64,000 bases of DNA from Thiocapsa bogorovii. GTDB lineage: Bacteria; Pseudomonadota; Gammaproteobacteria; Chromatiales; Chromatiaceae. The translations under genes and the position numbers were made by a program. The stretch covers positions 2,170,001 through 2,234,000 of the forward strand of contig NZ_CP089309.1 in the NCBI RefSeq assembly GCF_021228795.1, in the 5' to 3' direction. The notes beneath the pieces were generated by a model. That model was not told the DNA's origin, did no database searches, and saw nothing but the letters and a program-made list of their open reading frames with translations. Positions 60,191 through 63,813 of the stretch are shown in pieces. Each line of letters begins with the position of its first letter. Positions within the stretch are counted from its first letter, which is position 1.

Positions 60191-60199
60191 AGGTATTAA

Positions 60200-61859
60200 C
60201 CTAAAAAGAGCAGTTAAACCTTGCCTCGAGTGATCCAAGCCGCTGAAATATCGGCGCAAGGAGGTCCCCATGAGCAACCCGATCCCTCACCCGCAGGGTG
60301 AACCCGAAACCACCGCATTGGTACCGCATGCCGGCCCGGTTGCGGTGGACACGTTTGGCGGCCGCGTCCACGTCGAGTGGGATGCGCAGGCGGCGGTCAC
60401 CCCGCTGGGGCAGCTGCCGTTCTTCACCGAGTTTCTGCGCCTGGGCGGGCGTTTCGATGCCTGGGTCGAGAGCTGCCCGCTGAAGCTGACCAGCCCGAAC
60501 GCCCCGAGCACGCGCGACGTTCTGGGTACCGCCATCCTGGCGGTGCTGTCCGGGCATCAGCGCGATGCCCACATCAGTGCCCTGCTGGGCATGGAGGCGG
60601 TGGTGAGCGAGGACTCGGTGCGCCGCAACCTCGGCAAGCTCGATGAAGCCGACGGGGTGGACTGGTTGCAGAACCACCTGGACGCCTGCATGGCGCCGGT
60701 GCTGGGCGTGCCCTGGATTCTCGATGCCGACGTGACGGTCAAGCCGCTCTACGGGCATCAAGAGGGTGCGCTCAAAGGCGACAATCCGCACAAGCCGGGT
60801 CGGCCCTCGCACACCTACCATACCTATTTCGTTGCCGGTCTGCGTCTGATCCTGGACGTGGAGGTGCTGGACGGCAACCAAACCGCGTCCAAGTACAGCG
60901 CGCCGGGGCTGTGGGAGTTGCTCGCGCGCCTGCCGCGGGCGCACTGGCCGCTGTGCATTCGCGGCGACCGCGATTGGGGCACCCAAGCCAACATGGCACG
61001 GGCCGAGCAGGAGGGGATCCCGTATCTGTTCAAGCTGCGCATGACCTCCAAGGTCAAACACACCGTCGAGCGCCTGATGCGCGACGCCGAGTGGCGCGAT
61101 GCCGGTCAAGGCTGGCAGGGGGCCGAGACGACCCTGCGTCTGTCGGGCTGGAGCCGTGCCCGGCGCGCCGTCGTGCTGCGCCGGCGCATCAAGGCCGACC
61201 TGGCCGTCGTCGAGCAGGGTGATCCCGAGCAGCTGCGCCTGAGCTTCGCCGAGTTCACCGACCAGACGATCCTCTACGAGTACGCCGTGCTGGTGACCTC
61301 GCTGCCCCATGAGATCCTGAGCGTGGCGCAACTCTATCGCGATCGCGCCGACGCGGAGAATCCCTTCGACGAGCTCAAGAACCATTGGGGCTGGGGCGGC
61401 TTCACCACCCGCGACATCAAGCGCTGCCGCTTCATGGCGCGCATCACCGCCTTGACCTACAACTGGTGGAGCCTGTTCGTGCGCCTGGCCGACCCGACTC
61501 GGCACACCGAGGCGATCACCAGCCGCCCGCTGCTGCTCAGCGCACCGGCACGACTGACCCGTCACGGCGGGCAGACGCGCCTGACCATCAGCCATCCCCA
61601 TGCCGAAGCCGGGTGGGTGGAGGCGACCTGCCGCGAGATCGCGGCCTTCTTCAACACGCTGCGCCGAACTGCGGAGCAGTTGAGTCCCCTGCAACGCTGG
61701 TACCGGCTGCTCTCGCGTGCGCTGGTGAAGTACCTCAACGGCCGCCAATTGCAGCCGCCGGGGGTGTTACCGGCCCCGGCGTAGCCGCCGAACCGCCGGT
61801 ATGTGTACTCGCCCGCGGGCCGAAAACGCTCCGCGACGGGCGCTAACTGCTCTCCTAAG
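60200..61859 (+). mobile_element. IS1380-type insertion sequence
   Basis: About 1.66 kb with imperfect inverted repeats: left end at 60201-60216 (ctaaaaagagcagtta) and right end at 61844-61859 (complement cttaggagagcagtta), 13 of 16 bases matching. It carries one transposase gene. I could not find a convincing target-site duplication. The right end overlaps the stop codon of the neighbouring IS110-type transposase. Confidence 0.7.
60270..61784 (+). CDS. IS1380/IS4-type DDE transposase
   Basis: 504 residues, intact, with an aaggaggt ribosome-binding site before ATG 60270. DDE-type motifs: ILDADVTVKPLYGHQEG (first Asp), IRGDRDWG (second Asp) and the YRDRADAENPFDELKNHWGWGG block containing the catalytic Glu. 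The length is typical of IS1380 transposases, so the element may still move. Confidence 0.9.
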   Translation: MSNPIPHPQGEPETTALVPHAGPVAVDTFGGRVHVEWDAQAAVTPLGQLPFFTEFLRLGGRFDAWVESCPLKLTSPNAPSTRDVLGTAILAVLSGHQRDAHISALLGMEAVVSEDSVRRNLGKLDEADGVDWLQNHLDACMAPVLGVPWILDADVTVKPLYGHQEGALKGDNPHKPGRPSHTYHTYFVAGLRLILDVEVLDGNQTASKYSAPGLWELLARLPRAHWPLCIRGDRDWGTQANMARAEQEGIPYLFKLRMTSKVKHTVERLMRDAEWRDAGQGWQGAETTLRLSGWSRARRAVVLRRRIKADLAVVEQGDPEQLRLSFAEFTDQTILYEYAVLVTSLPHEILSVAQLYRDRADAENPFDELKNHWGWGGFTTRDIKRCRFMARITALTYNWWSLFVRLADPTRHTEAITSRPLLLSAPARLTRHGGQTRLTISHPHAEAGWVEATCREIAAFFNTLRRTAEQLSPLQRWYRLLSRALVKYLNGRQLQPPGVLPAPA

Positions 61860-63219
61860 AAACTCCGGCTGCCGGGGCGGGCTCAAGGGTGAAACCGAGC
61901 TGTTTGGCGCGACGCTCGAGGTTTTGCACCACCCGCCGGCGATGCCGCTCTTCGTAGTCGGACGCTCCCGGATCACTGTAGTCCATTCCATGGCGAAGCG
62001 TGTTGTAGAAGAGCACCGCGAGCTTGCGTGCGGTGGCGGTGACGGCCTTGGCCTTGCCGACACGCATCGCCAGGCGACGATAGAAGGCGCCGAGCGCGCT
62101 GTCGGTCTTGCCGACGTTGACGGCCGCCAAGCGTAGCAGGGCACTGGCGCGGTTGTGCGAGCGGCGGGTGCGCGCCGAGAGGACCTTGCCGCCCGAGATC
62201 TTGTTGCCGGGCGAGAGGCACAGCCAGGAGGTGAAGTGCTTGGCGGTCGGCCAGGCGGACAGGTCGGTTCCGCATTCGCCGACGAGCTTGAGTGCCAGAT
62301 AGGGGCCGATGCCGTGGATCTGCGTCAGATCCACGCCGATGACGGCATGCAGCGCCTGGCGAACCTCGAAAGCGAGGGCATTGGGCTGGCGGGTCTTGTG
62401 TCGGGGGGCGGGTAACGGCTCGGACGGCGGCTCGGGTGGCGCCAGTTGTGCGAGCGCCGCTTCGATGCGCCGATCACAGGCCACAACCCGTTCCTGATAG
62501 GCGTCGTAGAGCGCCACCGCCTGTTCAAGGGCAAACAGGTGCTCGGGTCGATAGTTGCCCTCCAGCGCCTGAGCAATGGTCTCGACCGACGCCTTGCAGC
62601 GCCCGTCGCGATAGCTCGCGAGCACCTGCGGATCCCGTGTCCCGTCAAGGATCGCGCGGATGATGCGCATCCCGGTCTTGCCGGTGATGTCGGAGACGAC
62701 GTGGTGCAGCTGCAGATTCATCTGCGTCAGCGCCTTCTGCATGTGCTGGATGTGGGAGGCTGCGTAGTCGAGCAGACGCTCGCGCTGGCGCAGATAGGCG
62801 CGCAAGGCGGCAATGTCGCCCGGAGGATGAAAGCTGCCGCGCAGCAGGCCATAGGTATGCAGTTGTTGCAGCCACTGGGCGTCGTTGACGTCGGTCTTGC
62901 GCCCCGGCACATGCTTGACGTCGCGAGCATTGGCGACGACCACGCGGATGCCGCGTGCCTCGAGGATCTCGTAGAGGGCAATCCAGTACACGCCCGTCGA
63001 CTCCATGGCCACCGTTTCGATCCGGCAGGCGACCAGCCAGTCCGCGAGGCGATGCAGATCGCCGGTGAAACTCCGAAAGGTGCGCACCGCCTCGGCATCG
63101 CACTCCGGCGGGACGGCAACAACATGAAATTGTGCACCGACGTCGATCCCCGCCGCACGGGGATTGACGGTGGACAGCGGTTTGGCGCGACGGCTCTTCT
63201 TGGACGGGATCGGCTTCAT
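61855..63219 (-). CDS. IS110-family transposase (DEDD type)
   Basis: 454 residues from ATG 63219. The N-terminal RuvC-like domain has AGIDVGAQFHVV, ESTGVYW and KTDVNDAQWL, giving the DEDD set. The C-terminal Transposase_20 domain has IHGIGPYLALKLVGECGTD and LSPGNKISGGKVLSARTR with the catalytic Ser region. IS110 recombinases are guided by a bridge RNA encoded next to the gene. The stop codon (TAG, 61855-61857) lies inside the right repeat of the IS1380-type element, so the last residues may come from that repeat. Confidence 0.92.
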   Translation of the reverse strand: MKPIPSKKSRRAKPLSTVNPRAAGIDVGAQFHVVAVPPECDAEAVRTFRSFTGDLHRLADWLVACRIETVAMESTGVYWIALYEILEARGIRVVVANARDVKHVPGRKTDVNDAQWLQQLHTYGLLRGSFHPPGDIAALRAYLRQRERLLDYAASHIQHMQKALTQMNLQLHHVVSDITGKTGMRIIRAILDGTRDPQVLASYRDGRCKASVETIAQALEGNYRPEHLFALEQAVALYDAYQERVVACDRRIEAALAQLAPPEPPSEPLPAPRHKTRQPNALAFEVRQALHAVIGVDLTQIHGIGPYLALKLVGECGTDLSAWPTAKHFTSWLCLSPGNKISGGKVLSARTRRSHNRASALLRLAAVNVGKTDSALGAFYRRLAMRVGKAKAVTATARKLAVLFYNTLRHGMDYSDPGASDYEERHRRRVVQNLERRAKQLGFTLEPAPAAGVS

Positions 63220-63275
63220 GACATGGCCCTCGACAGTCGAACAGGATCGAGAGCAGGGACAGCGAGATCAATCAC

Positions 63276-63512
63276 CCTAGATCCGGCAGTTGAACGGCCC
63301 CTGGAGTGCGTCCCGCGTGGTGTCCGGCAAGGCGCAACGAGGCGTCGTAGTGGTTCTACGACAACGAGTTGCAACGCGGTCGGGCGCCGCGCGGGACGTG
63401 CTCCAGGGGTCGTAGCGGCCGCCACCCGGCGGGTGAGGCATCAGATGACCATGATGCTCAACAAGGTCAAACCCTTGCATGCGGCACGAAGCGGTCAACT
63501 GCCGGATCTAGG
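63276..63512 (-). ncRNA. Candidate IS110 bridge RNA region
   Basis: This 237-bp non-coding segment starts 57 bp upstream of the IS110 transposase. It is bounded by perfect 18-bp inverted repeats (cctagatccggcagttga at 63276-63293 and its complement at 63495-63512). Inside, a 20-bp stem (63298-63317 with 63390-63409, 18 of 20 pairs) encloses a smaller hairpin (63344-63362, 7 bp, loop tggtt). In IS110-group elements the bridge RNA lies exactly here, upstream of the recombinase. It could instead be an unrelated folded MITE. Confidence 0.4.
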
Positions 63513-63726
63513 ATCACCTTCCTATTCGGGATCGCCGAACGGCGTCACCACACGCAGACTCGCAACAGTCCCCGGGCCACGTTTTTTTACGGGGTCAACG
63601 CCACCAAAAAGCAGACGGCCTCGGCTCTCGAAGTCGCCCCAAGTCTATGCCGAAAGGAGTTTGTGCGCCTACAGGAGCGGGGCGCGCCCCGAGGAGGGTT
63701 TTTTAGGATTAAAAAATATAAAATTC
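63513..63726. other. Non-coding gap after the IS110 element
   Basis: 214 bp with no gene. It includes T- and A-rich stretches (gttttttta near 63577, and attaaaaaatataaaattc at 63708-63726) that contrast with the surrounding GC content. Confidence 0.5.
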
Positions 63727-63810
63727 TAAACCGCGTTCCCGCTAAGGGCCGTGGATGCACCAAACGTCGAACTCACGCGAAAGTGAGCATCTCGCTCTGG
63801 ACGCGGTTTA
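63727..63810. mobile_element. MITE-like element C (84 bp)
   Basis: Inverted repeats TAAACCGCGTT (63727-63737, one mismatch) and GACGCGGTTTA (63800-63810). The interior is non-coding and unlike the other copies. It lies 3 bp beyond the pntB stop codon, so again directly at a gene end. Confidence 0.75.
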
Positions 63811-63813
63811 GGC

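What the first reader, a model, noticed from the sequence alone, without database searches (positions are those of the whole stretch)
63220..63512. Strongly folded segment with 18-bp inverted repeats upstream of an IS110 transposase: candidate bridge RNA
IS110 recombinases use a non-coding bridge RNA with two target-pairing loops, encoded upstream of the recombinase in the IS110 group. This region contains a long stem (18 of 20 pairs), an inner hairpin and outer perfect 18-bp inverted repeats. The outer repeats are not a standard IS110 feature, so this could be a variant guide architecture or a nested element.
Basis: partly seen in the sequence, partly recalled or inferred. Interest (0 to 1): 0.7.

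Follow-up and report, generated by a model that had tools for sequence, protein, structure and literature searches.

The report
Miniature transposon inside IS110 bridge RNA
The strongly folded segment is not the guide RNA of the neighbouring IS110 element but a small, gene-less jumping element that landed inside that element's likely guide-RNA region and split it, a neat but ordinary case of one mobile element hitting another.

Summary
The fold is real: perfect 18-bp outer repeats, a 33-nt inner stem (82% complementary), z -8.5 and -11.8 on the two strands. It is not the bridge RNA. It is a 237-bp MITE (63276-63512) flanked by a 5-bp duplication, ATCAC. The same element occurs away from this IS110 elsewhere in the genome and in 9 of 10 congeners; 35 of 48 readable copies have a perfect 5-bp duplication. 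Its ends and duplications resemble those of the IS1380-type element in the same window. The three other IS110 left ends found in the genome are uninterrupted at this site.

The real bridge-RNA-like domain lies in the same left end, minus strand, about 63518-63624, with its closing strand at 63256-63266 beyond the MITE. It is supported by compensatory changes across 53 sequences. The MITE sits in the donor-type loop. Most likely it impairs this copy's guide RNA, which a full-length sister copy could supply in trans; in silico the MITE closes on itself, so tolerance is not excluded. The window holds a nest: IS1380-type element, IS110 in its right repeat, MITE in the IS110.

The parts
63276..63512 (+). 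MITE, 237 bp, perfect 18-bp terminal inverted repeats CCTAGATCCGGCAGTTGA, internal 33-nt hairpin arms, no gene assigned
63271..63275 (.). left copy of the 5-bp target-site duplication ATCAC
63513..63517 (.). right copy of the 5-bp target-site duplication ATCAC
61854..63703 (-). IS110-group element that carries the MITE (ends uncertain by a few bases because of a T run at 63699-63704); about 1609 bp without the MITE in sister copy L011
61855..63219 (-). IS110 recombinase, 454 aa, complete; stop codon within 2 bases of the right end
63518..63624 (-). main part of the bridge-RNA-like domain: target-type loop (stem strands 63616-63620 / 63575-63581; putative guides 63606-63615 and 63581-63590) and the 5' part of the donor-type loop (stem strand 63559-63573, putative right donor guide 63519-63527)
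   Evidence: guide assignment is by inspection
63256..63266 (-). closing strand of the donor-loop stem, cut off from the rest of the domain by the MITE
60200..63707 (+). IS1380-type element (transposase 60270-61784) whose right terminal repeat is split after 61853 by the IS110; 5-bp duplication ATTAA at 60195-60199 and 63708-63712

Best explanation
63276-63512 is a non-autonomous MITE. A transposase of the IS1380 type, recognising ends like CCTA-N6-GCAGTTRA and duplicating 5 bp, inserted it into the left end of an IS110-group element, inside the donor-type loop of that element's bridge-RNA-like domain, between the putative right donor guide and the closing strand of the loop's stem. Most likely this IS110 copy makes a disturbed bridge RNA and depends on a sister copy in trans. 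Shown: MITE anatomy, duplication, empty sites, conserved domain and its interruption. Inferred: the mobilising transposase, the guide assignments and the loss of function. Rough odds: MITE nested in IS110 0.97; it interrupts the bridge-RNA domain 0.88; this impairs the guide RNA 0.6.
For: Nine further near-full-length copies in the own genome and 9 of 10 congeners with matches; apart from the window's, none of the MITE-bearing loci tested held this IS110. 35 of 48 copies with readable flanks have a perfect 5-bp duplication; among those 35, position 2 is T in 34 and position 4 is A in 35. Nine of ten IS1380-type copies with both ends have a perfect 5-bp duplication of the same NTNAN form and share CCTA-N6-GCAGTT at the ends. 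The other three IS110 left ends align without a gap across the site. The bridge-RNA-like domain: 96.9% of 1046 cells paired, 125 cells changed on both sides against a shuffled mean of 42.7, 0 of 500 shuffles as high. The covariance model finds it at 63624-63494 (109.7 bits) and runs out of register in the MITE; the sister copies score 114-130 bits.
Against: No autonomous element with the MITE's exact ends was seen in the 11 genomes of the genus (exact pattern), and the IS1380-type transposase is below the NCBIfam IS1380 cut-off (127.1 against 180 bits), so the mobiliser is inferred. 13 of 48 copies lack a perfect duplication. The interrupted RNA still folds its helices in silico, which speaks against certain loss of function. 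No transcript data. The consensus structure was derived from the alignment on which it was counted.
Confidence: 0.88

Rival explanations
1. The folded segment is itself the bridge RNA, or a variant guide architecture with outer inverted repeats.
For: It lies upstream of the IS110 recombinase and folds strongly.
Against: Absent from the three other IS110 left ends found in the genome; occurs elsewhere without this IS110; has its own 5-bp duplication; a different, conserved and covarying two-loop domain is present in the left end.
Confidence: 0.02
2. The MITE is a tolerated insert: its ends pair, so the bridge RNA keeps its helices with an extra side arm and the element is still active in cis.
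For: Mean helix probabilities with the MITE (target outer 0.71, target inner 0.59, donor outer 0.99, donor inner 0.54) are close to those without it (0.57, 0.47, 0.56, 0.69) and above the means of 40 shuffled inserts (0.35, 0.30, 0.48, 0.26).
Against: 12 of 40 shuffled inserts also keep the donor outer stem at 0.9 or more; the donor inner helix is less probable than without the MITE; folding alone ignores protein contacts near the guide; none of the 53 sequences of alignment A1 has a long insert there, though the way they were collected could miss such cases.
Confidence: 0.12
3. The MITE's own hairpin is under selection as a structured RNA or single-stranded DNA, beyond its terminal repeats.
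For: 97.8% of 2425 cells paired over 64 pairs in 38 copies; 6 pairs with changes on both sides (2 of 500 shuffles as high), 24 such cells (0 of 500).
Against: Two pairs carry most of the signal; the number of further pair types is not exceptional (52 of 500 shuffles as high); slid versions at -1 and +2 also give 6 such pairs, with 7 cells; the copies are closely related. No Rfam family reached its gathering score here.
Confidence: 0.2

Closest known systems
Bacterial MITEs of IS elements (here IS1380-type ends)
   Same: Short, gene-less, terminal inverted repeats, target-site duplication, many copies; ends and duplication resemble an IS in the same genome.
   Different: No autonomous element with identical ends was seen in the genus; the inside is an unusually long hairpin. 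This family was not met in the listings.
IS110-group elements with bridge RNA in the left end (IS621, PMC11208160, PMC11208158; ISEc21, PMC11187229; passages seen)
   Same: DEDD recombinase domain plus Transposase_20 domain, long non-coding left end, almost no right end, two-loop covarying domain upstream of the gene.
   Different: A 237-bp MITE sits inside the donor-type loop of this copy; no sequence match to a solved structure at E <= 0.001.
IS1383, IS4321/IS5075: IS110/IS1111-type elements that target terminal repeats of other elements (titles seen in the reference list of PMC11208160)
   Same: The window's IS110 lies in the right terminal repeat of an IS1380-type element.
   Different: Other copies of this IS110 lie at other A-rich sites, by eye in IS3-like transposase genes, so the repeat is only one of its targets.

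Membership tests
MITE (63276-63512) | terminal inverted repeats | tested here: met
   18 perfect bp
MITE (63276-63512) | target-site duplication | tested here: met
   ATCAC here; perfect 5 bp in 35 of 48 readable copies
MITE (63276-63512) | multiple copies at unrelated sites, short, without transposase | tested here: met
   nine further near-full-length copies in the own genome, 9 of 10 congeners with matches; at 237 bp too short for a transposase
MITE (63276-63512) | shares ends with an autonomous element that mobilises it | tested here: inconclusive
   CCTA-N6-GCAGTTRA and NTNAN duplication shared with the IS1380-type element; exact ends on no autonomous element seen; mobilisation not tested
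IS1380 family (element 60200-63707) | transposase reaches the NCBIfam IS1380 cut-off | tested here: not met
   127.1 bits against 180; PF13701 and PF01609 over their cut-offs; hence called IS1380-type only
IS110 group (element 61854-63703) | recombinase with PF01548 and PF02371 and IS110 family model | tested here: met
   74.1 and 48.2 bits over cut-offs; NF033542 261.3 against 140
IS110 group (element 61854-63703) | long left end, short right end | tested here: met
   about 243 bp before the gene without the MITE, right end within 2 bases of the stop codon
Bridge RNA: folded segment 63276-63512 | present in the left ends of sister copies of the IS110 | tested here: not met
   absent in L009, L010, L011
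Bridge RNA: domain 63518-63624 plus 63256-63266 | conserved two-loop structure with compensatory changes | tested here: met
Bridge RNA: domain 63518-63624 plus 63256-63266 | loops pair with target and donor | tested here: inconclusive
   resemblance to target and donor by inspection only; no covariation test of guides against targets was made
Bridge RNA: domain 63518-63624 plus 63256-63266 | expressed RNA bound by the recombinase | not testable with these tools
   needs RNA sequencing and copurification

The most novel reading that the evidence does not exclude
A natural bridge RNA carries a self-closing insert of 242 nt (MITE plus one duplication) in the 3' side of its donor loop and still works: the MITE's ends pair, keep the guide and its closing strand together, and so mark a permissive site for extra arms in bridge RNAs.
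Probability: 0.1. Interest if true: 0.55.

Novelty: new member of a known kind. Interest (0 to 1): 0.28.

Why it matters
It removes a false lead for a variant bridge-RNA architecture and places the real bridge-RNA-like domain of this IS110 subgroup, with covariation support. It offers a natural insertion mutant of a bridge RNA beside a full-length sister copy in the same genome, so that supply in cis against in trans, and tolerance of inserts in the donor loop, could be tested. It also describes a genus-wide MITE family with a long conserved hairpin.

Tried and rejected
Bridge-RNA reading of 63276-63512: rejected by empty sites, copies away from this IS110, and the target-site duplication. Rfam at gathering threshold over the window gave one tRNA and nothing else. 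A PDB sequence search with the IS110 protein gave nothing at E <= 0.001. Search for an autonomous partner of the MITE: the exact 18-bp end in the 11 genomes of the genus gave no inverted pair that I could see at the spacing of an IS, only pairs at MITE spacing and single ends (judged by eye from the list); the IS1380 family model found a second, 29-copy IS1380-family element in the own genome, whose ends I did not work out systematically. In one search the donor inner helix was indexed wrongly (zeros shown); one search repeats it and only one search is used for helix probabilities. A regular-expression step for guides was not used; the loop letters printed there were read by eye.

Rows dropped before counts. 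Bridge-RNA alignment: 80 loci were kept out of 404 that encode a relative; 64 sequences (63 loci and the window's joined left end) in the first alignment; 55 after removing near-identical ones; 53 in A1, because I left out L069 and L078, whose 5' half did not align. MITE alignment A2 holds 38 of the 50 copies; left out were L012, L014, L017, L018, L179, L180, L190, L193, L194, L196, L200 and L204 (a duplicate of the window copy, copies cut by a contig end, and copies with a shifted or disturbed end). The 50 copies come from the own genome (10) and eight congeners (40); the ninth congener with matches, G009, was not fetched. First looks were capped: one search scored 40 of 78 candidates, one search scored 150 of about 900-1480 per genome.

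Full report
Observation. The 18-bp end is found at only these two places in the window. The segment folds far better than shuffles on both strands, z -8.52 and -11.84, 0 of 200 shuffles as stable in each case.

What it is. The own genome holds nine further near-full-length copies of 63276-63512, two at 99-100% and seven at 78-88% identity, plus fragments. Separately, 63220-63276 matches three places that are other copies of the IS110 left end. The segment is flanked by ATCAC on both sides. With it and one ATCAC left out, the three other IS110 left ends (L009, L010, L011) align across the site without a gap. L011 is a full-length copy of about 1609 bp with a complete 454-aa recombinase; L009 and L010 keep the left end and only the start of the gene. 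Of 50 near-full-length MITE copies read in the own genome (10) and eight congeners (40), 48 had both flanks readable. 35 of these show a perfect 5-bp duplication; the 13 others have 4 (3 copies), 3 (2), 2 (4), 1 (2) or 0 (2) matching bases, in part because the end of the copy is shifted or cut, as in L018. The family has matches in 9 of the 10 congeners searched and, more diverged, in seven of the 45 genomes outside the genus; with the own genome that makes 17 of 56. The genus is probably Thiocapsa: the main contig of congener G008 has the length of the Thiocapsa sp. KS1 contig NZ_LN848257.1.

Who moves it. The window's IS1380-type element begins CCTAAAAAGAGCAGTTA, the MITE CCTAGATCCGGCAGTTG. 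Of 11 loci of this IS1380-type element read, 10 had both ends; 9 of these 10 had a perfect 5-bp duplication of the form NTNAN, the form that the MITE also shows, and one had 4 of 5. That is why I name a transposase of this type as the mobiliser. No autonomous element with the exact ends of the MITE was seen, and the transposase is below the NCBIfam IS1380 cut-off, so this step is inference.

The nest. The IS1380-type element starts at 60200 after ATTAA (60195-60199). Its right terminal repeat is split after 61853, resumes within the T run 63699-63704, and ends at 63707, followed by ATTAA (63708-63712). Between these lies the IS110 element, whose recombinase (61855-63219, minus strand) matches PF01548, PF02371 and NF033542 over their cut-offs. 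The MITE lies inside the IS110. The order of events that this implies is IS1380-type element, IS110, MITE.

The real bridge-RNA domain. The IS110 gene ends within 2 bases of the right end, so a guide RNA would have to be in the left end, as in the IS110 group (PMC11208160 and PMC11187229, passages seen; structure paper PMC11208158, passages seen). About 110 bases of the left end are conserved in relatives. On 53 sequences the consensus has a target-type loop and a donor-type loop. 96.9% of 1046 cells are paired, 13 of 20 pairs show changes on both sides, 125 cells do so against a shuffled mean of 42.7, and 0 of 500 shuffles reach any of the five measures. Sliding partners by 1-3 columns lowers pairing to 40-53%. 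The structure was derived from this same alignment, which favours it over the slid versions, and related sequences can exceed shuffles; the compensatory changes are the stronger evidence. A covariance model built from these sequences, L011 among them but not the window, finds the domain in the window (63624-63494, 109.7 bits), where its last part runs out of register in the MITE, and in the three sister left ends (114-130 bits); among the ten congeners it has matches in two.

Where the MITE hit. The duplicated GTGAT (minus strand) lies at alignment columns 127-131, between the conserved TTAGGAA-type stretch (putative right donor guide, 63519-63527) and the closing strand of the donor-loop stem (63256-63266, columns 145-150). 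The domain is thus split into 63518-63624 and 63256-63266. None of the 53 sequences of A1 has a long insert there, though an interrupted left end could have been missed by the way they were collected. In silico the MITE closes on itself and the four helices stay about as probable as without it (0.71, 0.59, 0.99, 0.54 against 0.57, 0.47, 0.56, 0.69 for target outer, target inner, donor outer, donor inner), and more so than the mean of 40 shuffled inserts (0.35, 0.30, 0.48, 0.26); 12 of those 40 also kept the donor outer stem at 0.9 or more. So loss of function is the likelier outcome but is not shown. For ISEc11 and ISEc21 the non-coding region was reported to act in cis or in trans (PMC11187229, passages seen), so the full-length copy L011 could serve the window copy.

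Targets. The left-end flanks of the copies read are CCT|AAAAAA (window, L010), CTCC|AAAAAA (L009, L011, L046) and ATCTT|AAAAAA (L045). The window's flank is the IS1380-type repeat; those of L009, L011, L045 and L046 look, to my eye and from recall of such proteins, like IS3-family transposase genes; no search was made for this. The putative guides TCTGCTTTTT and GTAAAAAAAC resemble these sites and the IS1380-type repeat ACTGCTCTTTTTAGG by inspection only. The conserved TTAGGAA stretch resembles the right end TTTCTTAGGA, again by inspection.

The MITE's hairpin. Over 38 copies, 97.8% of 2425 cells are paired. Six pairs show changes on both sides (shuffled mean 3.1; 2 of 500 as high) and 24 cells do (mean 8.6; 0 of 500). 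The number of further pair types is unremarkable (52 of 500 as high), and the versions slid by -1 and +2 also give 6 such pairs, with 7 cells. Some constraint on the hairpin is possible; relatedness of the copies could explain part of it.

Literature. Full-text searches for MITE with IS1380 (16 papers, 15 listed), IS110 with bridge RNA and MITE (none), Thiocapsa with insertion sequence and inverted repeat (1) and IS1380 family with miniature inverted-repeat and target site duplication (none) showed no description of this element in the listings. Those papers were not opened. Only the open-licence library was searched.

Verdict. It is a new member of a known kind (a MITE), made mildly interesting by its landing place inside a bridge-RNA domain.

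Noticed in passing
window 63708-63811: A palindromic repeat of about 100 bp directly beside the nest; one search lists 37 further places in the own genome apart from the window and the three IS110 copies.
   Followed up: no
L014, L017, L022 (MITE ends): In three MITE copies the end at CTAG abuts the same foreign sequence (CCCGGATGTTTCATA); a second IS1380-family element, with 29 copies over the cut-off in the own genome, lies within about 350 bases of each.
   Followed up: partly
L009 and L010: Truncated IS110 copies that keep the whole left end with the bridge-RNA-like domain but only the start of the recombinase gene.
   Followed up: partly
L112:1279-1416: Apparent short duplication in the donor-loop hairpin of a relative's bridge-RNA-like domain.
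   Followed up: no
window 60200-61853: The window's IS1380-type copy appears about 27 bp shorter than the 1688-bp copies elsewhere in the genome (open frame 516 against 525 aa).
   Followed up: no
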